The translations under genes were made by a program, and so were the position numbers. The notes below the pieces were generated by a model, which saw only the letters and a program-made list of their open reading frames with translations, ran no database searches and had not been told where the DNA came from. A stretch of 64,000 bases of DNA, taken from contig JAXQJY010000032.1 in NCBI GenBank assembly GCA_037042185.1, positions 3,224,001 through 3,288,000 of the forward strand, given 5' to 3'. Shown piece after piece: positions 1,509 to 56,200 of this stretch. The stretch comes from Sordariomycetes sp. S80-01Y (lineage: Eukaryota > Ascomycota > Sordariomycetes). Position 1 is the stretch's first letter, and the number at the start of each line of letters is the position of its first letter.

Positions 1509-4468
1509 CTACAGTGACCGGGAAAGAGGGGTTCGTCTCCTTGCAGAGCGACTAAATAACATGGTCCCGCCAGCCAAAATGACAGGCAAAACGCTCACAA
1601 GCTCTCCCAGCCCAGCGAACTGTGGCGGAATCCGGACCTTGTCATTGCCAGTGGCGGCAAACAAGCCACTAGCCAAGAGGATGGCAAGGGTGTTGTAGGC
1701 GATAGCCCAGGCAAAGTTGAACAGAATCCGTCGAAAGGCGCAGCGGCTCAAGTGCAGCATATACGGAACACCCTTGAGCCCACTAAACAGGACAACGTCG
1801 GCTGCGTCGCAAGTGATGTCGCTCGAGGAGAGGGATCCTCCCACATGCACGCCTACATCGGCACGGCTCACGGCGCCCGCGTCGTTGGCCCCGTCGCCGC
1901 AGAACATCACCACTTTGCCTTGCTCTTGCAGACGGGTAACGTAAGTCACCTTGTCGGTTAGAGACCGCTTCGAGGCTACGTTGCCGTCGGGTATGCCCGC
2001 CTCCCGCGCAGCATGCCAGCAGGCAACGTCTTGGTCGCCTGAGACCAGGTGGACTGCGATGCCTTGACGCCCCAGATCGTGGACGACCTCGGCGGCGTCG
2101 TGTTGCAGTCGAGCACGGAGCGGAAAGCAGGCAATGAGCTTGTCGTCCTGGGTGACGCTGAGGATGCTGAACCCATCACTTACAAATCCCTTGACAATGG
2201 GCTCAGATTCGCACAGAGTCCAACTGGGGCTGCCTGCCTTGACAATGCTGTCCCCTAGATGCGCCAGCACCCCCTTTCCCGGGTGAGAGTGCGTGTCGGC
2301 TAATTGAGCAGCCTCCACCTTGTGGTCCTCCAGATACTGGTTCACCGCAACCGACACGGGGTGCCTGTTGTTGGCAACCAGTGCTTTCACAATGGAAAAA
2401 ACTTCCTCTCTGCTACGCGAGAATGTCGCGGCCGTCACAACCTCGAGAGTGGACAGGGTGATGGTCCCTGTCTTGTCGAAGACGACGTCGGTGACCCTTC
2501 TCGCGCCTACTGTTGCCTCGCTTGTTTTTATGACGACTCCATTTTTTGCAGCGACGCCGCCAGCTACGACAATGACCATTGGAACTGCGAGGCCAAGGGC
2601 GCACGGGCATGACACAGCGAGGACGGCAACCGCAAAAGTAATGGCCCTCGCAGATGCTGTGCCGACATCGACCTGTCTGGCTCTTGTTTCCACCAAGAAC
2701 CAGGTCAGGAACACCAAGGTGGCCACGGTGACGACTATTGTCACAATGTACTTGGCAACGCGGTCCGCCAGCTCTTGGACACGCGGTCTGGAATTGGACG
2801 CCTCTTCGACCTGCTTCGCGATGTCCGTCACCGTGTTCGCTCCAGGCAGCCGCCTGAGCTCTACTACAAACGCCGCAGAGCCGTTGAGAGTGCCTGCAGA
2901 GACCATCGACCCTGGGCTCTTGGTCACAGGGAGACTCTCACCAGTGAGCATAGACTCGTCCACTTCTCCGGTGCCTTCGACGACGATGCCGTCCGTGGGG
3001 ATCTTTGTCTCGGGCAAGACCTTGAATCTGTCGCCTAGTTGCAGGAGGCGGCTGTCGATCTCGCTGTCTCTGCCGTTCTCGACGACGACGGCCCTCGTCG
3101 GCTGCAGTGACCGAAGCGAGACTCGCTCCACGGCGTAGGTGCGAGCGCAGGCGGCTGTGAAGCGTCCTAGTAGAACGAATGCGATGAGCAACGCGCTCGT
3201 CTCGAAGAATGGCTTTTCCTCGAGTGGCTTCCCTGCCATGAGATAGCCAAACGCGGCAACGGAAAATACGTATGCCGCCGTGATACTGACGGTCACCAGC
3301 ATGTCCATCTCAAGAGTCCGGTATTTGATGGCCGATATGAGTGCAGGTCTGTAGAAGTCGGGGATGGCAATCAGCTGCACCAGAGTCGCCAGCACAAGAG
3401 ACACTGTGGCCTTCTTTCTCTCATCCATTGGCACATCCCCCATGTTCAGGACAGCAACCGGTAGGGCGAGGGCTGTCGCCAGGCAGAGCTTGATGAACTG
3501 CTCTTTTCGAGCCTTCCTTCCGATTGATAGGGCAGGATCGTCTTCCAACGGCGCAAGTTCCACTTCTTGATACTTCTGTCTTAAAAGATCAAACAGTACC
3601 CGCGCGCCCACGACAGCAGGGTCGTAAGTGATGCGTCCCACGCCATCCCCCAGACTGAGGATGTCCAGTATACCTGGTACTCCCTGCTCTTCCACGGACT
3701 TGATCAATGAACGTGAAATGGACACATCCAGATGGTGGTGCTCTTCAGCTACTGGTATGCAGCGATATCTCGTGTTCATCTTGTGGACGGCCCGAGCAAC
3801 TCCATCCGAGGAGTTCATCGAAGCATCAAGCTGAATATCGGCCTTGCCATGCACGAAACTAACGCTCGGGTGGTACACTCCAGGCAATCTGATCAAGTTC
3901 TTGCGCAATCTCTCTGCACAGTCGGAGCAGTCCATGCCGAAGACAAGCAGAGTGACACGTTCGAGCACAGCACCGTGCTCGATATCTCGATGGATATGTT
4001 CTCCGGAAACGTGTTCTGAAGTAGTCTCGACATGCTCCTCCGAGTCACCTGATGCATCGTGATGCCCGCCGCAGCAAGTGGATTTTGTCCGCTGATGCGA
4101 ACCACGGCAGTGGTTCGCATTACTTGGGGATACAGTTTCGAGGGGTATCCCAGAATGATTGGCGTCGTTCCCAGAGGTGTACGAAACGCTTCCCGAAAGA
4201 GGCGATGCGATGGGGACTAGAGCGATTAGCCCTGTGTAGCACGAGATGAGACGAGAGGAGGGCAGAGGGATGGTTTCCCTATTTATGGGTAGACTATTGA
4301 CTTACCATGGCCCAACGGAGGCTTTGATAGGTGCTCTGGCGTGTCTTCGCCTCGGCTATCTTCCTTTGAGCAACTTCCGGGGTCGCTACATGCGGGCTCG
4401 TTGTGATCTTGCGGCGAAGACATCTCTTGAATCCTTCCGTCATCCGGAGATAGTCTGACCTGGGACAT
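1509..4468 (-). CDS. P1B-type heavy-metal (copper-like) transporting ATPase
   Basis: Pumps a soft metal ion across a membrane using ATP. Exon 1 is 4468-4306 and exon 2 is 4231-1509, joined by a 74-bp GT-AG intron (donor GTAAGT, acceptor ACACAG); the product is about 961 residues. Visible in order: a Cys-rich N-terminus with CCGGHH, one heavy-metal-associated domain with GMDCSDC (about 3940-3917), a second HMA-like fold lacking the cysteines, TGES, the membrane CPC motif (about 2609-2601), the phosphorylation motif DKTGT (about 2477-2463), an RHP motif of the nucleotide domain, and GDGANDAG. About eight membrane helices. TM7 keeps the YN pair but the last helix has GELVSVLPVILAGG instead of the M-x2-SS signature of classical Cu+ pumps, so the metal is uncertain. 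The N-terminus is provisional: an acceptor-like TTGCAG near 4535 could bring in a further upstream exon. Confidence 0.85.
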
Positions 4469-7908: not shown

Positions 7909-10872
7909 ATGACTACAACTCTTCCGAGGCCGTCAAGGCCGTCGAATGGCCCGCCCAACATGGCACTGCCATCCCTCCCCGTTAGCAAGTCGCGAAAGAG
8001 CACAGGAAACATCCCGACCCCGAGTTCGAGATCCGCGCCCAGCACACCTAGCGGACTGCGTGCGCCTTCGACATCGCACCTCCCTCCCCCGCCAAGTCCC
8101 TCGCCGCTCTCCGCGCTACCTGCTCTTCCAAAGACCCCAAATGGCAGTACTCAAACACCAAAGACTGTCCGAAAGACCGTCAGCATCAACTCTTTCCCAC
8201 AGCCACCGAGAGGCGACAATCGGACAGGGACTGTTCCTCCCAGTCCGCTGGGCAGCGACAGGCCTCGCACCGCTCGGAAGTCGAAGTCATCCAGGGAGTC
8301 TATCCACAGCAACTTCAATGCCGGCACGCCGAGCTTCTTGAATGGGAGCGGTGAGGGCAAGTCCATCACTAGTGTTCGCATGTCCGATGGCCTCGTCAGT
8401 GTCGGATCTGAGACGCAAAGTCGCAGCTCCTCTGCACAGGACTCCTACTCAACTTCCGCGACGACATATGATGATCCTGCGGATGGATCGACTCCGAAAC
8501 CCGATTCCGTATCCGAGAAACGCGCCTCAAAGCCTGACGGGAAGGGAAACGTCATCGTGAGCGTGCGTGTACGCCCAACAGCTAATGGCGACCATGGTAA
8601 TCCTGAAGGAGAATGGATGGTTGATGGGCGCCGGTCGCTCATTGCTTACAATGGAAAGGAGGGCGGAAACCACTATTACGGTAAGACACCTGGGGAATCG
8701 GGCTACAGACTTGACTAAACAGCCGCAGACAACGTTTTTACGACACACGACAACAATTCCCGAGTATATGATCATCTTGCCAAACGATTGGTTCGGAGAG
8801 TGATGGAAGGATACCACGGTACCGTTTTCGCTTACGGTATGACTGGAACGGGAAAGACGTTTTCGATGCAGGGCACAGCGTCATCTCCCGGTGTGATACC
8901 CCTTGCTATCACCGATATCTTTTCATATATTCGTGAAACGCCTTCAAGGGAGTTCCTGCTCCGAGTCAGCTATCTCGAAATCTACAACGAGAGAATCCAT
9001 GATCTGTTGAGTATGCCTACCAACGGTGGGGGCTTAGGAGGCGCCGGGCAACAGGATGAGATCAAGCTCAGGGAAGATAGCAAGCGCGGTGTGTACGCGA
9101 CGCCGCTCAAGGAAGAGATCGTTCAGAGCCCTACACAACTGCTGAGAGTAATCGCTCGGGGCGACCAAGCCAGGCGGACGGCGAGCACGCAGTTCAACGC
9201 GCGCAGTTCTCGAAGTCATGCCGTCGTTCAGATCGTGGTGGAAAGTCGAGAGCGCACGCCTGCCGGCGCAGGAGCTGGTGGCGAAACGGGGAACAAGCGC
9301 TCCGGGCTACTGCCAGGCGGTGTCCGTGTGTCGACGCTGAGCTTGATCGATTTGGCGGGCTCTGAGAAGGCTGCCGAGTCCAAGGAGAGGCGCCAAGAAG
9401 GTGCTCATATCAACAAGAGTCTGTTGACCTTGGGCACAGTCATCTCCAAGCTATCCGAGAGCAAGCCTAAAGAAGGCAAGGGGGCTGACAAGGATGGCAA
9501 GCACCTGCCATATCGTGACAGCAAGTTGACTCGTTTGCTTCAGGGTGCATTAGCCGGTAATTCCCTGGTGAGCATCCTTTGCACCATCCAAGTTGGCGCC
9601 CAGGGCACTGCAGCAACGGTCAACAGCCACACGACGGAGACCCTCAACACTCTGAAGTTCGCGTCGAGAGCGAAAAACAATATTGTGAGCCACGCGAAGA
9701 AGGCCGAGGAGTCATTGGGGGCCGGAGGTGAAGGAGGTGCCCGCGTGCTACTGGAGCGATATCGCCTGGAAATTGTCGAGCTTCGACAGCAACTCGAGAA
9801 ACAGGCTAAGAAGAAGAAGGGCGAGGTTGAGGAAGAGGAGGATGATGACAAAGTTGAGCGTGAGGAAGAGCAGGTGAAGGAGCACCAGCAGACCGAGAGG
9901 CACGAAGAGCAGCTTCTTGAGATGCAGCTTGCAAGAACTGCTCTCAAGGAGCGCATCGACCATCTCAACCGGCTCATTTTAAGCTCCAAGTCCTTCGGTG
10001 TCAATTCGAACGGGTCGATCAGCTCACTGGGTAACCACGCGCGGTTCTCCCAGGTATCTTTGCCTGGTTCTATCCGCTCGTCAATTGCCACCTCGGTCAG
10101 TGGCAGGCCCCTCATGGAGAGGACTGCATCCATGACCTCTGCTTCATCCACGATAGGTCGGAGGTCGAGCAACGGCGGGCCCCGCATGTCCATGGATGGC
10201 GAACCTCTGGACAACGACGAAGACAGCGCAGGCGAATTCGGGGACGGAACTGCATCGTTAGCTGCCCAGAATCGTGCCCTGCAGTCCGATCTCGTCGACA
10301 AGAACAGATACATTGCCACGTTAGAGAAGCGGCTCCTGCAAGCTAGGCGCGCAAGCTCGTCACGAACGTCGGTCGGCATCGGAGCGTCAGGCAAAGGCAT
10401 CATGGTCGGAGAAGACCATAGCGTATCTGCCGCGCTGAAAGAGAAGGATGCTGAGATTGCCGAGCTCCGGGCCAGATTGGACGATAAGGATAGGATGCTG
10501 GGTGCACTCCGAAGTGCAGCTCGGTCTCGAGATACGGCCGAGAGTAGAACTGAAGTGCGCTCCCCGGTGTCGCCCGTGTCCCAGACGCACTCGCAGAGGG
10601 ACTCCAGCCCAAAGGGGGTGGTGAACGGGTCGCCAACCAAGGACGACAAGAAGCCGAGGAGGAGCGTGGACGAGGTGACCTGGATGCTGGACGAGATGAT
10701 CCAAGACAGGGTCGACGATGGCTACATCGTCAAGGGCCAGAGGGGCAGCGTTCGCCTGCCAGCCGGCAGGAGGGACACGCTTCAGGAGCCGACGCACAAC
10801 ATCGAGCCCTTGAGGCACACACCGACTCCCCTAGGTGACAGAGACAGGACGCCCGTGCCCGAGGCACACTAA
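7909..10872 (+). CDS. kipA: Kinesin of the KipA/Kip2 type (plus-end-directed motor)
   Basis: A microtubule motor; in filamentous fungi KipA-type kinesins move along growing plus ends and help keep hyphae growing straight. Exon 1 is 7909-8680. The intron begins GTAAGA and ends at AG 8722 or, better given the branch-like GACTAAAC, at AG 8728, so exon 2 is 8729-10872 and the product about 971 residues. A serine/proline-rich basic N-terminus of about 210 residues precedes the motor: SVRVRPT (about 217), P-loop GMTGTGKT (about 293), switch I NARSSRSHAV, switch II LIDLAGSEK (about 462). A long coiled coil follows, with an acidic EEEEDDD stretch, then a Ser-rich tail. The N-terminal basic extension before the motor and the motor motifs fit KipA better than kinesin-1 or Kip3. 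The name is by family, not by ortholog testing. Confidence 0.88.
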
Positions 10873-15811: not shown

Positions 15812-17203
15812 ATGGCTCTACTCTATACTATTAAAACGCCCAGCACGGCTGACCGACGCTCCACCCTGCGAGCTGCGCCAAAGCCCTCAAAGAAGACATC
15901 ATCAAATGGTCCGGATAGAGACTTGACGAGGAACTTAGCTCAGGGAGGCACCGTGGCGAAGTCAAAGTCCACGACGAAGGTTGCCGCCAGCTCGGGTGCG
16001 CTGAGGTCGATTCTCAGGGACCCTTCAACCACAAAGTCTAGCTGCATCGTCACGTTCAAGAAGGACCCAGCGACTAGAAGAACAGTGGTTCTCAAGCCAG
16101 CTTGTAGTCTGGGCCGGGAGGTCCAGCCCGGAACCTCAGAGATGGAAGCAGGTAGTTCTCGTGCTGCGCCAGATGGCGTGGAGATCCAGCGGGAGGGCCT
16201 TCGGATGAAGGGCGAGGATGGAACATCCAATAGCGATCTTAAGGGTTCCGTGGATAGCGGGGACAGCGAGTACTGGCGTAGCCTAGATGAATAGGCCGCA
16301 TGGGTCGTCGCGGGGAAGAAGTCCAGAGAGAAGGCGGAATGGGACGATCTTCACCAGCAGCTCCGGGTAAAACAACAAACACAGGGCGATGCCGCTCTTG
16401 ACTGGACAGAAAAACTTTTTCTCAAGGAGGCTGAGGAGCAGGATCTGGGCGTCTCTCGCGAGGGGATGAGGGATGATATCGAGCATGAATCTCGCGCCGA
16501 ACACACAGCCAAGGGGTCACATCCTTCAGAGCCACTGCTTGAGCCCGGGTCTCTCTTCGCCGTACTGAGCAGCGAAGCTGGTCCAATTCTTGATTGCAAC
16601 AAATTAGGATCCAAGGCACCTGGAACGCCTTCCTGGATGGATGGTATTATGAACTCGGTGGATGTCCTCGCGGCTTGCGGGGATGAGCGCCCTGACTACG
16701 ACATGTTGAGAGCTTCCGATACACTATGGTGTATGAGCCAGGGGAGGGAACCAGCGGCCAACTTCCCCACGCCTCAGGATTTGGGGGAAGCTGCCGAGCT
16801 GCTGGATCTAATTAGGAAAGGGGGCGGATGGGGTCACTTGGTCGACGAGGAATCTCAGGCGGGACCTGGTGCCACCGAAAGCACGGCTGCCGCACTGGAG
16901 TACTCGCAAGACTTCGATATCTTCCATGATACGAGCGATGCATCCTTTGGGAGTTTATCTCCGGGTAAGAGGTCAGTGTCAAAGGCCTCGCTTCCAGCAA
17001 CGACCGTCAATAGCAAAAAGGCCCGAGTTGGAGAGGAGAATCACCCGCCAGTATATGAAGACGACCACAAACTTCCGAGCGCAGTTGGGGGAAAAGAAGT
17101 AGAAGAAGCCTATGTGGTTACAGGTGAGACCAGACTAAACTCTGATGACATAGTCATAGATGGCGTTGGTTACTCGTCGCTCGGGGCCGGTGGTGCTTGG
17201 TGA
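15812..17203 (+). CDS. Unrecognised protein gene with a single in-frame UAG (possible recoded, edited or spliced gene, or pseudogene)
   Basis: From the ATG at 15812 (context ATCGCCATGG) one frame runs to the TGA at 17201-17203, 464 codons, broken only by TAG at 16292-16294 (codon 161). The 302 codons after the TAG are open and show normal, acidic, charged protein composition. The first part is basic with an SILRDP...VTFKKDP stretch; near the stop lies SGDSEYWRSLDE; after it comes a Lys/Glu/Gln-rich helical stretch (KKSREKAEWDDL onward). This order faintly recalls the fungal spindle-pole-body protein Cut12, but the resemblance is too weak to name it. Explanations to weigh: UAG to UGG editing by A-to-I deamination, as in sexual tissue of Fusarium and Neurospora; read-through; a cryptic 45-nt intron 16250-16294 (phase 0, weak donor GTGGAT) ending exactly at the TAG; or a young pseudogene. 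Confidence 0.6.
16276..16299 (+). promoter_or_regulatory. Predicted RNA hairpin containing the in-frame UAG
   Basis: GCCTA (16281-16285) pairs perfectly with TAGGC (16292-16296) around a six-base loop GATGAA; GCG (16276-16278) can extend the pairing with CGC (16297-16299) across a two-base bulge. The UAG forms the loop-proximal part of the 3' arm. The pairing is visible in sequence; any function is inference. Confidence 0.4.
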
Positions 17204-17749
17204 GCGAGGACATAATGGCCGGTGAAGAGACGACAGTGGTGGGGATCAAGAGTTCTGTATCCTTAAGCTGTATAGACTAGTAAATTTTCATATGAGTAGC
17301 ACAGGTTGCTACTCGACTTTGCTTGCCGCTTGCTTCTATACCTCGATGAATAGCATCGTGAAGATTGAGCCAGTGATTAACGACGATTGTGTTGGAAGAC
17401 TACCGTTCAGATCTAGGTTCGCTTAGCTTTTGCCCACCAAAGCCATTACTAAGATATAGATGTTACTTAGACTATCGAGACATGAGGTACCACTTGTTGA
17501 GTCACACCTGATTTATAAGGTAAGGTAAAAAATACTATCCGTAAGGCATGGTACTAAGTACTACTATACCTTAAGTACTATGGTACGTGCACTAGTGGCA
17601 CGCTCCAAAGTGGAGCCTGGCGCATCGGCCGGCACCTCGAACTCGAGCTCTCGCAACCTTTGTCCTACTCACACCAGCGCACCCACGTCCATCTCAGAGC
17701 GCATCTACGCGTCCCCCTCCGCTGCGCACAGCACGATAAACACGCCATC
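17204..17749. other. AT-rich island with imperfect inverted repeat upstream of TAF7
   Basis: About 17270-17580 is clearly more AT-rich than the flanks. An imperfect inverted repeat built on GGTACTAAGTACT (17550-17562) and AGTACTATGGTAC (17574-17586) lies at its right end, with repeated GGTAAGGTA and CCTTAAG words nearby. No coding frame is supported. It could be a decayed small transposable-element remnant or simply promoter DNA. Confidence 0.45.
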
Positions 17750-19291
17750 ATGTCAGGCGACAAGGACGGCCCGCCGCCGCCCACGAAGCCGCGGCTGAAG
17801 CTCGTCAACCGCTCCTCGTCCCTCGCGACCGCCAGCGATGCCAACGTCAAGGCCGACTCGCCCTCGCAGGCCGCCGTGCCCGCAACCCCCGGCGCCGACG
17901 GCCCCCGCAAGGTCAAGCTGAAGGTCCCGTCCTCGCAGCCCGCTACGCCCGTCGACGGGCCTGGCCCGGTTGTCAAGACCAAGGCCGGCCGTCAGCCCAA
18001 GCCAACCCAGAAGCTCGTGGACAGCAAGAAGCGCCCCGCCGAGGATGACGACGACGACGACGTGCCGCTCAGCCAGAGCCACCCCGCACCCAAGATCAAG
18101 ATCAGGCCGACGCCCAAGAACACGCCGAGGGGCGCGCCGCAGGTGCTGATCAAGCAGAAGGGGAAGCCACCGTACCACCCGCCGGGCGATGGCTACGATT
18201 CCGAGGCGAGCGACAGGGAGATTGATCCTGCCATCGAGGAGCAGCTGATACTGAGGCTGCCGCCGGGCGAGCACGCCGACTACGTGAGGAAGATGATGGA
18301 CGAAGGCAAGATCGGGGTCCCCAAGGCGCAGGGAGGCGCCGACTTCTACATGAGGTTCTTCGACGAGGAGACGAGGAGGGCGTGCGTGCATGTCAAGGGA
18401 CAGCCCTTTGCGGCGGTGGTGGTGGACCTGCCGACCATCACCGAGGCCATGAAGACGTGGGATCGGAAGAGCCTGATGAAGTCTGCCGACATCTGCCAGA
18501 TGCTGCTCGCCTTCCAAAAGGTCAAGAACGAGGAAGAGGCGAAGAAGGCACCCCTGCCAAGCATAATAGACAGCCACTTCAAATGGCCCCACGGCCTCAC
18601 GCCGCCCATGCACGACTGCATAAACCGCCGTTTCGCCAAGACGATATCACGGAAGGAGATCGAGGACAAGGAGGCCGAGGTCGAGAGGCTGCTCGCGGAG
18701 GATGCTAAGGCGCGTTCGACGAGATGGGAGTGGATCGACGACAGGGACCAGGATGAAGACGATGAGCACGGAATGGAGGACCTCTCAGGTGACGAGGAGG
18801 AGGAGGAAGAGGAAGACGCCGAGGGCGAGGTCGACGACAGCATAGGCTACTTCGGCGAGCAGGATGACTACGGCGACCTCGAGGACGCCATGGAGGCCGC
18901 CTTCGCCGACGCCGCGGACGATGTCATGACGGACACGCCCGCCGCCGGCACCGAGGCCGCCACGCCCATGACAGCCACGCAGATAGAGACCCCCGGCGGC
19001 GGCCCCGTGCAGGCCAGCATCGAGGCCGACGAATCCGAGGAGGACGGGTCCGACGACGACGATGATGACGACGACGACGACATGGACGACGACGAGAGGG
19101 CGCAGCGCGACGAGGAGCAGGGCATCAAGGACATCATCGCCGACATGCAGAAGCAGCTGGCCGCCAAGCAGCGGGAGCTCGCCGGCCAGCAGAACCGCAT
19201 CCTTAAGGGGCGCATCGAGAACCAGATCAGGGAGCTCAAGTCCGAGATTGAGCTGAAGATGTCGTCGATCGGCATGGAGGCGGATGAGTAG
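17750..19291 (+). CDS. TAF7: Transcription initiation factor TFIID subunit 7 (TAF7/TAFII55)
   Basis: Subunit of TFIID, which places RNA polymerase II at promoters. The intronless gene encodes 513 residues. A low-complexity Pro/Lys/Ser N-terminus precedes the TAFII55 domain (about 160-315), visible as EEQLILRLPPGEHADYVRK, then ACVHVKGQPFAAVVVDLPTI, TWDRKSLMKSADICQMLLAF and the Trp-Pro-His-Gly-Leu-Thr-Pro-Pro-Met word. The C-terminal half has very acidic Asp/Glu runs and ends in a helical coiled-coil-like segment rich in Gln, Lys and Glu. The frame is open upstream to an ATG at 17660, but the ATG at 17750 (context CGCCATCATGTC) starts the typical MSGDKD-like N-terminus and is chosen. Confidence 0.92.
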   Translation: MSGDKDGPPPPTKPRLKLVNRSSSLATASDANVKADSPSQAAVPATPGADGPRKVKLKVPSSQPATPVDGPGPVVKTKAGRQPKPTQKLVDSKKRPAEDDDDDDVPLSQSHPAPKIKIRPTPKNTPRGAPQVLIKQKGKPPYHPPGDGYDSEASDREIDPAIEEQLILRLPPGEHADYVRKMMDEGKIGVPKAQGGADFYMRFFDEETRRACVHVKGQPFAAVVVDLPTITEAMKTWDRKSLMKSADICQMLLAFQKVKNEEEAKKAPLPSIIDSHFKWPHGLTPPMHDCINRRFAKTISRKEIEDKEAEVERLLAEDAKARSTRWEWIDDRDQDEDDEHGMEDLSGDEEEEEEEDAEGEVDDSIGYFGEQDDYGDLEDAMEAAFADAADDVMTDTPAAGTEAATPMTATQIETPGGGPVQASIEADESEEDGSDDDDDDDDDDMDDDERAQRDEEQGIKDIIADMQKQLAAKQRELAGQQNRILKGRIENQIRELKSEIELKMSSIGMEADE

Positions 19292-31885: not shown

Positions 31886-33310
31886 CTATAGTGCGCTTAG
31901 GTCGATAGGCACACTGCTTCCTCTCCCTGCTCTGTACTTTCTTGGACGGTTAATGTGCTCTCTTGGCTTTGGCAACAGACTTTCGTCTTTGAAAGTCCAC
32001 CTGTTATCGGTCACGGTGAACCTGGCACCCCCGCCACCGGTGCCCCCTCCGCCGCTTGGGGTGGGCGAGTGTCCATGAGGCGATGGGCTTGGCGACTTTG
32101 ATCCGTTGGCACTCAAGGTGAAGGCGCTTGGATCGAGCATCGCCTGGCGCAAAGAGGAGCCTCGAGGTCTTGTCGGGGCAGCCTCTGGCGGTGGCGAGCT
32201 CGTATTCGGGGGAGCAGGAGCTGCTGAGGGCGGCGGGGGTGGTGGTGGTGCTGGCGGCGCTGCACTTGGAGCGGGAGACGCTTGGCCAGCGGATCGTATG
32301 GCTGCTTGAGCAGCAAGGCTCGCCGAGCTGTTTGTAGGCTGAGGCGGAGGGGGTGGCGGCGGAGCCTTTGGCGTCGGGGAAGGGGTCGGCCGAGAGGGTG
32401 CCGCTGCTGGGGGCGGAGGCGGAGGAGCAGGAGGAGCTGATGGAGCTGACGACGGCGGTGGTGGAGGAGGTGCCGATGGTGTAGGTGCCGAAGATGTTGG
32501 AGGAGGGGGCGGGGGTGCCGGAGGAGCGGGCGCTGAAGGGGCTGTGGAAAGGCCAGAGGGCTTGCGAGATGTCGGCAGAGGGGGCGGCTTCTTTCCAAGA
32601 GGCGGAGGAGGAGGCTTCTTCAGAGCTGGGGGTTTGGGTGCCTCTTTCCCAGGGCCTGGAGGAGCTGGAGGAGGTCCTGGTGGTCCTCTACCAGGGATAG
32701 CTGGAGCGGCGCCAGCTGGTGGTTTGGGTGCCCCGCCTGTGGGAGGCTTTGGCGCTGACAGTTTCGACTCCCCTGGATCCGAAAGATACGAGGCCTCTGT
32801 GTCTCTTCCTGTATCAACGCCTCCCCTGCTCTTCTTCAACTTGGGCATGCCACCGGCGAAGAGGCCACCAAGCTGCGGCGCCGAGTCCGCGCCACTACTT
32901 GTCTGACCCTGATCACTGTTGCTTCTAGCTCTGTTCCCTGGCACAGGTGGCGCAAGACCTCCCGGAGGCTTTGGCGCTCCTCCGATCCCAGGAATCGGCG
33001 GCGCGCCTCCAACTGGCGGCCCGGAGGGTGTAGCCCCAGCATTACCGACGATGGGCGCCGATCGGTCGTTCGTAACGGCTTTTTTCAAGGCCTTCCCTTT
33101 GTGGATATCTGACAGCAGAGCGCCCTGGGAAGCATTAGCCATTCGTCTTCATGTTGAAGAGAGTTGAGTGCATACCCTGCCTTTGCCATCTGCTGGACGA
33201 TTAGGGAGATCACCGGCTTTGGGCGCACCGCCAGGGGGGAGCGGTGGCGGTGGGGGAGGTCCGCCAGCACCTGGAGGAGGAGGGGGCGGTGGAGGAGGCG
33301 GTGGTGGCAT
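31886..33310 (-). CDS. Verprolin/WIP family actin regulator
   Basis: Binds actin and WASP-type proteins at endocytic patches. Exon 1 (33310-33176) encodes a start of twelve prolines and ends in DGKGR; a 50-bp intron (GTATGC...TCCCAG) leads to exon 2 (33124-31886); product about 457 residues. Spanning the junction is a WH2 motif, RGALLSDIHKGKALKK. The middle is almost entirely Pro-rich runs that could bind profilin and SH3 domains. The C-terminus RFTVTDNRWTFKDESLLPKP matches the WASP-binding region of verprolin/WIP. Gene length fits fungal verprolins. The mirrored purine/pyrimidine content creates many spurious frames on the other strand. Confidence 0.92.
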
Positions 33311-44722: not shown

Positions 44723-47700
44723 ATGCCTCGCTGGAAGCGATATCAAATAGCCGCTGGCACGCTGTCAGTCGACAAGGATGACAGCCGCCTCAGCGCAGCA
44801 GTCTGGCAAGAGTTAGAGGAGCGGATCTGGTACACCTTCACTCACCAAGACGATCCGACAAACGAGAACGAGCTGCCTCTTTCTCCCGAGTTACAATCAT
44901 TGATCTTTTCTACGACGGGACTCAAGCAGATCGGATCTCTTTTCCGGAAAAGATGGTTAAAGCTAGAGTTAATGGTTCCCAGCGCTGCCCACTTCCTCAT
45001 CCGGGTTTACCTCCTCCCGGACGATGTGTTGCGGGGGTCCATTGACCGCACAGTCCCTTCAAGCCGCAAGGAGCGAGCCGCTCTTATTCCAAGGCTTAAT
45101 TATTCAACATCGGCCTGGAAAGGGGCGTGTTGCTCTTTGAATGACCACAGTACTGTCACAGTCGACACCCTGGGCCCCGAAAGCGAGCAAGACACCTCTC
45201 TCTTGGAGCTCTTCAACACCATCCCGTCACCGAACCCGGCCCCTGAGGAAGTCCTTGATCTGTTCTCACGAGAGGCGATCAGCAATTTGCTTGAGAGTAA
45301 GGTTTTGGGATTGGTAACTGAGCTATACCCTTATCAGAGGCGCTCAGCTGCCTTGATGCTTCAGAGGGAAGTCCAGCCAGGCCAGATCTTGGATCCTCGA
45401 CTGCACCGGCGAATTGACCAGGACGGGAAGTGCTTCTACTTCGATCATATCTCCACGACTTTTCTCTCCGAGCCTCGCTATTATGATGGCATTTCCGGAG
45501 GCATCCTGGCGGAAGAGATGGGCGCGGGTAAGACGATTATATGCCTTGCTCTGATACTGGCATCAAGAGCTATTCCAACGAGGGTGCCCGAGATATACGG
45601 CATACCACCCACACCTACACGTCCGCACGCCGTCAGCCTCATGGATATGGCGGCGTCGTGCGTGACACGACATGGTGTTCCATGGCGATCCTACCTCGAT
45701 GTATATGGGGGGCAACAACTTAACTATTCCCGCTGCATCGATGCGGTCAAGCGCAATCCGGGCTACTACCTGGTTCCCCCGCCAGAACCGCGCCGTGGTG
45801 GGCGACACCCCAGCGCGGTAGAGCTCCCACCTCCGAAGAAAGTCTACCTTACATCCGCCAGCTTGATAATTGTTCCCACAAACCTTGTCGCACAATGGAG
45901 GCAAGAGATCAAGAAGCACACAGACGACTTGAATACTCTCATTGTGACGAAGGCCGACCGTATCCCGTCTCACGAAGTTCTCTTGGACTATGATATCATC
46001 TTATTCGCGCAATCTCGCTTCGAGACATTCGTTTGCCAGACGCAGGACGTTGGATCTTCTCCTTTGGGTCGACTTCACTTCAAGCGATGCATAGTCGACG
46101 AAGGACACAAGCTAGGGAACTCCAAGATCAGATCGCAGAGCAATCTTCTACTAGGGCTAAACAATCTTCACTTCGAGTCACGTTGGGTAGTTACAGGCAC
46201 GCCGTCGCACGGCCTATATGGCTTCGAAAGTGGCAAGGGGTCGCTCACGGTCAAGAACAGCAACACTGAGAACGTTCCGGATGAGTCCAGCCCGGGACAG
46301 CCTCACATGGAGAGACAAGACCTGGAGAGGATAGGCTCTATGGCGGCCTTGTTTCTGAAGGTTCGCCCATGGGCCAACAACAGACTCGAGACTGGAGACA
46401 CACCTGCGGACTGGGATTCGTACGTCATGCTCCCACGACACAAGAAAGGCAGTCAAGGGCGATGGGATACATTGAAATCTGCACTCAATTCACTTATCAT
46501 CCGCCATCGCCTTGATGAGGTGAGTGACATGCTACCTCCTGTCGAAGAGAAGATCACCCTTCTTGATGGGTCATATCAAGACCTACTTTCGACAAACATC
46601 TTCTCTATGATGATAATTTTCAACACAATCCAGTCACAACGGACGGACCAAGACTACTTCTTTCATCCAAAGCAGCGGAAGGCGCTGCTGCAGATTGTCC
46701 AAAACCTAAAGCAGGCGAGCTTCTTTGGAGGTTCCTTCTTCACTACTTCGGAAATTTCGAAGGCTGTTGAAACGGCTGAAGAGTTTCTGGAAAAGAAGGC
46801 TGTCGAGGTAAGCCCTGACGACGAGGCACTTCTGAAGGATGCGATCTCGTTTGGGCGTTTGGCGGTGCAGAACACACTGAGAAATCTCAGTAACCAGTTC
46901 CACGAGATGCCAGTTATGGTCGAAGGGTTCCCTGGGGGAGCTGGCCGTTCATGGTCTCTCGGGTTCGGCACTGACGACTTGAGTGAGGATCGCATCTGCA
47001 CATCGGCCAGCTTGGTACTATCTCTCCAGAAGTTGATATACAACACAGCAGGAAACCCGGAAAAGTTCAATTCCCTTCTCAACGGAGGGTTGCAACAAGA
47101 AGGCATGATTGAGAAGCAGAAGTTGATGGATGCTTTGAACCCAAACGGCAGCACTTCCGAGACCAGGACATCTCATCAATCTCAATCGCAGACTATGGCT
47201 GGGAACACGAAGCTGGGAGGCGACAGCCCTCACAAACCACGATTCCATGGTGTCAACGGTGCCAAACCCATGGTAAAGTTGGCTGATGATAGCTTCTCGG
47301 CATCTTTAGAGTCGACAAAGATTACGGCAACGGTGTCGGCGAAGCTATCTTATCTGGCGGACCAGGTGGTGAGACACCAGGATGATGAGAAGATCATCAT
47401 CTTTTACGAGAATGACAATGTTGCATTTTACCTGGCCAGCATGCTCGACGTGGTAAGTTTCCCGAGACCTCTCAAAGGAATCGAGGCTGAGGCATTATGC
47501 AGCTACAGATCCAACACTTGATCTACGCCAAATCGTTGAGTGCAGAACGCAGGGCTCAGTACGTGAGCACCTTCAACAACAAGGACGAATTCAGGTGAGC
47601 AGTACGCACATGCATACCAGTACCTTGAATTGATTTCTGAGAAGGGTTCTGCTGATGGACCTTTCCCAAGCTGCTTTCGGTCTCGACATGAAGGCAGCCT

Positions 47701-53251: not shown

Positions 53252-56200
53252 CTAAAAGAAGAAGCCCTTCTTTTTAGCCGGCTTCTTCTCAGGTTCGCCA
53301 AGGATGTCGTCAAAGGTGGCGCCAGAGTTGTCCTCGGCCGGGTGGTCTTGCTTAGGCGCGAAGCTGCTCGGACGGCCTTGCTGCGCGTTGATAGCAGCGA
53401 GGTTGCCGTGCGAGCGACTGCGGGCGCCCAGGTTGCTGCTCAGGGGGCGCGGGCCCTGAGAGCTGCTGCGGTTGTGGCTGCCAAAGGGAGCTTGGGGCTC
53501 CATAGGTACAGGTTCGAGACCCAACGCCATGCTAGAACGATAGGCGTGGCTTGCACGGTTTGCCCGACCCCCTCCTGGAGACAGGTTCCGTGGTCGAAGT
53601 TGGACAGGAGGTGAGCCAGTACCGATAGGAGGAGTAGGTGAGCCACCCATCATGGGCGGTGGGGTGTTGATCATGCCAGTAGGGTCGTCGTTGAGGACCG
53701 GAGGTGGTGGCTGGAGAATAGGCAGAGCAGGCTCCTCAGGCGGAGCCTCCTCGGCGTCAGGATGGCCCTGCCACTTCTTCGCAGCGAGCCAGCAGTGGCT
53801 GCGATGGTAGGTAGCCTCGACGCTGAATAGCACCGCATCGGCTGAGAGTTGTACTAGGCCACCACCGCCAGCGACTTCATACCACATCTTGCGGACCTGC
53901 CGATCCTCAATCCACGGCGGGTTTCCCATTGGGGGCTCGCAGAGGAAATACTCGGTTCCCTCAGTAAACTTGAGGCCAGGGGCATCCACGACCAACATGG
54001 GCAGCGACTGAATGGTCACGTAAAGGAACAGCCAATAACCCATGCGCTGATCCACAAGATCGGGTGCCATCTTGCCCTTCGCCTCGCGCAGCTCGAACTC
54101 CTTGAACTTGTCGAGGAAGGGCAGTTTAATCCTGTTCGCATCGTAATTGTAAGCCTTGTTGAGGATGAGCATGAGCTCGTGCTCCTTCACATTTTTGTCG
54201 AACTTGATCTGCTCCTTGGCTGACAGAGTCGGGTAGGTCTCAAGGACGGATGTCATCGACGGGAGCTGCGGGCGATCGAACGGAATGGGAGGCAGCACCG
54301 GAGGCTTCGACCGGTCGAACTCGGACATGATGTTGCTAAGAGCCGACATGGTCATTTTGCTTGGCTCGCTGGAGATGGCCGGGACCTCGTCCATAACACG
54401 AGACGTCAACTTGGTGCGATCCACCAGAAGATCGTACAAGGCGCACATGTCCGAGTACAAAACCTTGAGTACGAGCCTGTTCAAGCCGCTCTCGGCGAAC
54501 GGGTTCTTGGAGCTGCTGGCTTTAGGGGGCCAGCTGCCGAATGTGGACTTGTAGTGGCTCAAGACGAAAGAACGCAGCTTCATAAACGAGCTCTTCCAGA
54601 TCTTGAATCGGACGTGCCTCAGTTCAGATATCGAGGTTGAGTTGGCGATACCCGCGAAGAGTGATGGGAAGTCGAATTGCTCGATGTGAAGATTGACACC
54701 TTGCTGGCGACCAACAAGATCCAAGTGCGCCTTCTCCAGTTGCTGTCGAGTATGAGGGTTGACCATTTCGAACAGCGGTAGCTTGAGGTCCATAATGGCA
54801 ACGTACTTGCCAGCCGCATGCGCGAATGCCTCGCTGTACAGATCGATAGAGCGCATGCGTTCTCCCAAAATCAAGGCCTCGATGGTCTTCTCTCGGCTGC
54901 TGCGGCAGTCTGCCAGCCCCAGCTGATCGATGTAGAATTCGAAGCTCAAGTCGACAGCATTTCCAAAAGTTGCTCCCTCGTCGCTAGCGAAGCCAAATTC
55001 CTCCAGGAGGGCGGCAATCTGAAGAAATGCGCGGAAAGTGTTTGGGTGTGACTTGGTCGCGACCAGCGGCTGGCCTGTAAGGAAGGCAAATAGGTTCCGG
55101 ATCGCGATCAGACGGTCTACGTCGGCATCTGAGCTCTGGTCAGGGGACGACAGCTGGCCAGCGTCGGCTGATGGGGGAGCGGTTGGCAGGTACAGCCTCA
55201 AGTCGCCCGGGGATTCGTCGAGAGGCGGTGATGTGGGAGGTGAGCGAATGCGAGCCGCATCCTCGGCAGTCAAACTGTTTCGGCCGCCGAAGCTCCTCGC
55301 GCGGCTCCTAGTCCCAGAGGTAGGTTCACGGTCGAATTGGATGAGTTCGTTGAAGACGTATGAAGAGCTGACTGTGAACTCCATCACCTTGAAAGAGGGG
55401 CCACATCCGCTACCTCGGGGGTAGAGGTACACATAGACGTTGCCACTTTCGTTCCAAAGCTCGGGAACCTGCGCGCTGCGTTAACTGTTGGAGTTCCACA
55501 CCGGTATTATCAAACTAACCTTTTCGCCGTTCTTCAAGAAAGACGTATTGTACTCCGCTTGGCTTTCGTCGGCCATCCAAGCATAAGAAGAGTGCTTTCC
55601 CCCCTTTCCGGTAACATCGACCGAGTTGGATCGTGACCGGCCTCCGGGAAGCCAGCTTCGCCTAAGGCGGCCTCTGGAGGGACTCTGACTGCCACCATCG
55701 GCGGTCGCTGACTGCGTCCCAACCGGCAAGGATGAGATTCGAGAAACTTTGGGATCCTGCGGGGCAGAGGGCGATTGGGCAGACACAGCCCGCCGGCCAC
55801 GCTGTTCCGGCGACTGCCCAGAAACAGCCGTCTGAAGACTGTCGTGCGCCTGCCCTATCTTTGGTTGCTGTAGCGAATTCCTTCGGGAGCGATTCTCGTG
55901 GTTGTCTTTCTGCAGCTTGCCCTGTCTCGGGGAGTTGTCGGTAGGGGAGCTTTCGACTGTCGACGTCGAACTTCGCTGGGTGCCAGCTCTGGCGGCCGGT
56001 TCTTGCTTCAACAACGTCGCTCTCCTGGTTTCTGGCGAGGGCGGAGTGGGAGCCATGATCTGGGGGTGTGGTGGATATTGCGTCGAGAAGGAGGAGGTAG
56101 GTATTTGCGTTTCGATTAGGGGAGACGACATCGACGAGGAGAGCGAGGACTTCTGAACATGTCCTGATTCGGGCCTCGGGGGTAGGACCGGAGGGCTTGC

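What the first reader, a model, noticed from the sequence alone, without database searches (positions are those of the whole stretch)
15812..17203. 464-codon gene broken by exactly one in-frame UAG
The frame is otherwise completely open before and after the TAG at 16292-16294, with good start context and protein-like composition on both sides. A decaying pseudogene would normally show more than one lesion, so the UAG may be edited, read through, spliced out, or very young. In Fusarium and Neurospora, A-to-I mRNA editing in sexual tissue turns UAG into UGG in a set of such genes, with U favoured at -1, which is met here.
Basis: partly seen in the sequence, partly recalled or inferred. Interest (0 to 1): 0.75.

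Follow-up and report, generated by a model that had tools for sequence, protein, structure and literature searches.

The report
Fungal gene with a conserved internal stop
A mould gene has a stop signal in its middle that two related sequences also have at the same place, while much of the protein code after the stop is kept nearly unchanged, so the cell probably has a way past it, most likely the RNA editing already known from the fruiting bodies of other moulds.

Summary
In detail: 160 open codons, TAG at 16292-16294, 302 open codons, TGA. It is not a young lesion. Two related upstream proteins end at exactly this residue (88% and 78% identical); a related downstream protein (91%), from a contig of the same length as one of them, has a 121-residue stretch with one change (0 of 20,000 permutations). 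The 57 codons right after the TAG have in-frame codon usage (above 448 of 448 out-of-frame controls). No consensus donor (16001-16292) or branch site (16001-16600) was found. The genome has a Tad2-like deaminase and a DUF726 protein with the Met-Val pair of the editing cofactor Ame1. Best reading: a premature-stop gene made full length by A-to-I editing (UAG to UGG) in sexual tissue, as PUK1, AMD1 and CHE1 of Fusarium: a new member of a known kind. Against: the A is predicted in a stem, not a loop; +3 is C; the relatives' stop codons are unseen; no RNA data were at hand. 'U at -1' is true of every UAG and is no evidence.

The parts
15812..16291 (+). upstream coding segment, 160 codons
   Evidence: open frame; P0002 and P0003 match from residue 48 on (88% and 78%) and end at its last residue. 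Residues 1-47 are not covered by either.
16292..16294 (+). in-frame TAG; two related proteins end at the same place
16281..16296 (+). predicted RNA hairpin, 5-pair stem and 6-base loop; the A of the TAG is in the stem, second pair from the loop
16295..16465 (+). 57 codons between the TAG and the first downstream ATG; in-frame codon usage; predicted as a helix
   Evidence: low-confidence model, block means of pLDDT 55-80 over residues 1-50
16466..17200 (+). downstream coding segment from the first ATG, 245 codons; P0001 91% identical
16505..16867 (+). conserved core: 121 residues with one change to P0001
17201..17203 (+). terminal TGA

Best explanation
One gene of 462 sense codons with an old in-frame UAG. 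In most tissues only the 160-residue N-terminal piece is made. In sexual tissue the Tad2-Tad3-Ame1 deaminase changes the A of the UAG to inosine in part or most of the mRNA, the ribosome reads UGG (Trp), and a 463-residue protein with its conserved C-terminal core is made. Shown here: the stop, its shared place, the continuous coding frame, uneven conservation of the downstream protein, no consensus intron signals, and a Tad2-like and an Ame1-like gene in the genome. Inferred: that the relatives' stop is also UAG, that the mRNA is edited, that this happens in sexual tissue, and that Tad3 is present.
For: Two related upstream proteins end at exactly this residue. The downstream protein differs from P0001 by 21 substitutions in 243 aligned residues, 2 of them in a 122-residue core (Fisher p 6e-5, core limits chosen after looking); the longest stretch with at most one change, 121 residues, is reached in 0 of 20,000 permutations. 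P0001 and P0002 both report a longest contig of 483,062 bases. In-frame codon usage directly after the TAG. None of the 17 GT sites in 16001-16292 fits GTRNG, and no CTRAY branch site is in 16001-16600. Own genome: L005/L006, whose best solved matches are tRNA adenosine deaminase 2 chains, TAD2 among them; three DUF726 genes, of which L011 has Met-Val where L009 has Leu-Asp and L010 Leu-Asn; PMC11087585 ties Met500-Val501 of Ame1 to editing in Sordariomycetes (passages). Precedent: 70 F. graminearum genes besides PUK1 need UAG-to-UGG correction (PMC11156358); of 47 with orthologs in F. verticillioides 34 share the event (PMC4817773, passages); CHE1 has the same layout, a 145-residue N part, a conserved UAG and a better conserved C part that annotation splits (PMC11169179).
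Against: No transcript data. The target A is predicted paired (0.93-0.999 in 6 of 6 fold sizes), whereas 62.4% of F. graminearum sites lie in hairpin loops (PMC4817773); freeing U and A costs 4.7 kcal/mol; of 1000 random TAGs of this genome 371 are in stems, 334 in loops, 295 elsewhere, so the site looks like background. +1 is G as preferred but +3 is C, not A or G. The relatives' stop codons are unseen, and so is whether their halves are in one frame. The downstream half belonging to P0003 (contigs up to 2,809 bases) was not found. No ortholog with a residue at the site was found, though full-length proteins were within the length limits. Edited stops are often not shared between genera: of 240 orthologous genes 9 were edited in S. 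macrospora protoperithecia (PMC5381528, passages). Tad3 was not looked for.
Confidence: 0.6

Rival explanations
1. Ribosomal readthrough: the UAG is decoded by a near-cognate tRNA at low level, giving a C-terminally extended isoform, without RNA editing.
For: A conserved stop followed by conserved coding sequence is equally the mark of readthrough. A hairpin spans the stop, though the region's fold is only modestly better than shuffles (z -1.72; 11 of 200 shuffles as good).
Against: The motif shown to work in fungi is UGA followed by CU(A); UAG or UAA in its place reduced readthrough (PMC4207609, passages). Here it is UAG GCC. The extension, 302 codons, is long for a readthrough extension (recalled).
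Confidence: 0.1
2. Two proteins from one region: the UAG is the true end of a 160-residue protein, and a second protein of about 245 residues starts at the ATG at 16466.
For: In the relative the two halves are recorded as separate proteins; the downstream part begins with a Met in both.
Against: The 57 codons between TAG and ATG have in-frame coding usage. The Met is not at the same place: P0001's Met stands beside the residue after the window's Met. Separate records are what an automatic caller gives with a stop in between, as seen for CHE1.
Confidence: 0.13
3. An intron removes the TAG, always or in some tissue.
For: FgBUD14 has both editing and alternative splicing over its stop (PMC11156358). 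Other in-frame stops in this genome lie, by eye, in in-phase introns.
Against: 0 of 17 upstream GT sites (16001-16292) fits GTRNG and no CTRAY is present in 16001-16600 (donors further upstream were not tested); the residues right up to the stop are conserved as protein in three sequences.
Confidence: 0.1
4. Decaying pseudogene or assembly error.
For: One nonsense codon; no Pfam match for either half.
Against: Two related proteins end at the same place, no second lesion in 462 codons, uneven conservation downstream.
Confidence: 0.04

Closest known systems
CHE1 of Fusarium graminearum (PMC11169179; outline and abstract, introduction, first result, sections 6 and 7 seen)
   Same: short N-terminal part (145 residues), one in-frame UAG conserved in close relatives, C-terminal part better conserved, automatic annotation splits it
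   Different: CHE1 encodes a zinc-finger protein, its A lies in a predicted loop and editing was measured in hyphae; here no family, A in a stem, no RNA data
PUK1 and the 69 PUK1-like premature-stop genes (PMC4817773, passages)
   Same: UAG inside an otherwise open gene, partly shared between species
   Different: editing shown there by RNA-seq; here inferred
AMD1 (PMC5496914, passages)
   Same: one early UAG (codon 211) in an otherwise open gene
   Different: MFS-domain membrane protein; 97.6% edited in perithecia
UGA-CUA readthrough genes of fungi (PMC4207609, passages)
   Same: stop followed by a conserved coding extension
   Different: other stop codon and other context

Membership tests
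A-to-I corrected premature-stop gene (PUK1-like) | in-frame UAG in an otherwise intact coding frame, not in an intron | tested here: met
   intron judged by consensus signals only
A-to-I corrected premature-stop gene (PUK1-like) | A-to-G at the UAG in cDNA of sexual tissue | not testable with these tools
   no RNA data at hand
A-to-I corrected premature-stop gene (PUK1-like) | downstream protein conserved | tested here: met
   one relative
A-to-I corrected premature-stop gene (PUK1-like) | genome with Tad2, Tad3 and an Ame1 with Met-Val | tested here: inconclusive
   Tad2-like and Ame1-like found; Tad3 not searched for; orthology of Ame1 rests on domain and residue match, no tree
A-to-I corrected premature-stop gene (PUK1-like) | target A in a hairpin loop (a preference, 62.4% of sites) | tested here: not met
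   a preference, so not excluding
A-to-I corrected premature-stop gene (PUK1-like) | A or G at +1 and +3 (preference) | tested here: inconclusive
   +1 G yes, +3 C no
fungal UGA-CUA readthrough gene | UGA followed by CU(A) | tested here: not met
   UAG GCC

The most novel reading that the evidence does not exclude
The stop is kept by selection as a switch between a short and a long protein, both functional, and is passed by a route that does not obey the known loop preference of fungal A-to-I editing: either stem-targeted editing or a UAG readthrough of a new kind steered by the hairpin over the stop.
Probability: 0.2. Interest if true: 0.6.

Novelty: new member of a known kind. Interest (0 to 1): 0.42.

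Why it matters
Stop codons kept over speciation and corrected only in fruiting bodies are a test of whether RNA editing is adaptive or merely tolerated. A gene whose better conserved part lies behind the stop, with the site outside the favoured RNA shape, is a useful case: if edited, it shows that evolutionary signals alone can find such genes without RNA data; if not edited, it points to another way past a UAG.

Tried and rejected
Intron: 17 GT sites in 16001-16292 and AG sites downstream were listed; no consensus donor there and no branch site in 16001-16600. Protein family: no Pfam match for either half at E 1. Distant orthologs: a search with the core alone (104 residues), E up to 10, found only P0001 (1 hit of 147 candidates); the first search gave 1 of 6,423 and the upstream one 2 of 111. 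So whether other genera carry Trp there is open; how well that database covers fungi is unknown to me. Structure of the downstream piece: mean pLDDT 39.6, pTM 0.19, too poor for a fold search, which was not run. A known edited gene as control: the one DNA-methylase gene found has no stop in its two matched stretches, so a RID-type stop was not seen there. Organism: not identified; no 5.8S rRNA match in the assembly; PDB comparison of three window proteins did not help to place it; a search for a nucleoporin family did not complete four times. Count of TAG against TAA and TGA: I had meant to use 664 kb, and did it on 264 kb; after inspection one case remained, so nothing is claimed about an excess of TAG.

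Full report
What is there. The frame from the ATG at 15812 has 160 sense codons, a TAG at 16292-16294, 302 sense codons and a TGA at 17201-17203. A search of its genome (30.87 Mb in 16 contigs) with the downstream piece gave one match, itself. Neither half matches a Pfam family at E 1. The next ORF downstream has a TAF7-type domain.

Is it one gene? A codon model was trained on 23 long ORFs (13,393 codons) from 200 kb of another contig. The frame scores +0.043 bits per codon before the TAG, +0.168 over the 57 codons right after it and +0.028 from the ATG at 16466 on; the other two forward frames score -0.26 to -0.52, the reverse frames -0.47 to +0.012. The 57-codon piece lies above all 448 out-of-frame control pieces and at the 59th percentile of 224 in-frame pieces (the latter come from the training ORFs themselves). 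So coding seems to go on in the same frame directly after the stop and not to resume only at the next ATG. A low-confidence model of the downstream piece (mean pLDDT 39.6) shows residues 2-50 after the stop as one helix, with block means of pLDDT 55-80; this fits but is weak.

Is the stop young? A protein search with the 302 downstream residues gave one hit, P0001, 246 residues, 91% identical over 245 aligned positions, whose Met stands next to the first Met after the stop. A search with the 160 upstream residues gave two hits, P0002 (113 residues) and P0003 (116 residues), 88% and 78% identical (89% and 76% by the local alignment). Both end at the very residue before the TAG, in DSEYWRRLDG and DSEYWRRLDE against DSEYWRSLDE. 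P0001 and P0002 report the same longest contig, 483,062 bases, so I take them as two halves in one relative (inference). A stop at the same place in three such diverged sequences is old. P0001 has 21 substitutions in 243 ungapped positions but only 2 in a 122-residue core (Fisher p 6e-5; core chosen after looking); the longest stretch with at most one change is 121 residues, reached in 0 of 20,000 permutations. A pseudogene would hardly show this. Limits: the relatives' stop codons and the frame relation of their halves are unseen, no Ka/Ks could be computed, residues 1-47 and the 57 codons after the stop are covered by no relative, and the downstream half belonging to P0003 was not found, perhaps because its contigs are at most 2,809 bases.

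Is it an intron? In 16001-16292 there are 17 GT dinucleotides and none fits a GTRNG donor; no CTRAY branch site occurs in 16001-16600. By contrast a DUF726 gene in the same genome (L009) and a window gene at 55481 on the - strand have in-frame stops that by eye lie in ordinary introns.

Can this fungus edit? L005/L006 (C10:759788-760222) match the cytidine/adenosine deaminase family, and the best solved matches of the L005 piece are tRNA-specific adenosine deaminase 2 chains (E 1.9e-26 to 2.3e-25 for the first three, one of them named TAD2). Three DUF726 genes are present. Ame1, the cofactor of sexual-stage editing, is a DUF726 protein; a mutant of its Met500-Val501 behaved like the deletion, and the authors place the gain of its Tad3 contact in Sordariomycetes (PMC11087585, passages). 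Aligned with each other, the three copies have Met-Val (L011), Leu-Asp (L009) and Leu-Asn (L010) at one place, and L011 has Gly where the two others have the Ser of GYS; in L011 the Met stands 31 residues before that Gly, the spacing of Met500 and Ser531 in Ame1 (counted). So the fungus is probably a Sordariomycete with an Ame1 (inference; no tree, no Ame1 sequence compared). The species was not identified.

Does the site look like an editing site? U at -1 and G at +1 come with every UAG. +3 is C, where A or G is preferred. The A is in the stem of a hairpin in 6 of 6 fold sizes, paired probability 0.93 to 0.999, and with 21 bases as well. Of 1000 random TAGs in 200 kb of this genome 371 are in stems, 334 in hairpin loops, 295 elsewhere. 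So the local shape gives no support. It does not exclude editing, since 62.4% of F. graminearum sites, not all, are in hairpin loops (PMC4817773).

Verdict. The gene fits the known kind of premature-stop genes corrected by A-to-I editing: 70 in F. graminearum besides PUK1 (PMC11156358, parts 1 and 2 of 3 read), 34 of 47 shared with F. verticillioides (PMC4817773, passages), though sharing between genera is low (PMC5381528, passages). CHE1 is the nearest in layout (PMC11169179). Editing is my best reading at 0.6; two separate proteins, readthrough and an unusual intron share most of the rest. None of my paper searches was for this gene itself; they were on editing and readthrough in general, so I do not claim that it is absent from print.

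Noticed in passing
L011 (G000 C13:1431556-1432602 +): Ame1-like DUF726 protein with the Met-Val pair but with Gly where the two other copies have the catalytic Ser, in line with the report that the triad is not needed for editing.
   Followed up: partly
window 55481-55483, - strand: Two long open frames (506 and 742 codons) separated by one TAA; by eye an in-phase intron with a GTTAGT donor; no Pfam match for the ORFs on either side.
   Followed up: partly
L009: A DUF726 gene with an in-frame TAG that by eye looks like the acceptor end of an in-phase intron.
   Followed up: partly
G000 C16:2899019-2899888: Only one gene matched the DNA-methylase family, no stop in its matched stretches.
   Followed up: no
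window 31886-33142 (-), 8788-10872 (+), 1509-3968 (-), 17660-19291 (+), 44723-47521 (+): Neighbours by Pfam: WH2 motif, kinesin motor, P-type ATPase with a PCA1-type heavy-metal domain, TAFII55 (TAF7) region, SNF2-related domain.
   Followed up: partly
G000: No 5.8S rRNA match at E 0.001 in the assembly; the rDNA array may have been left out.
   Followed up: no
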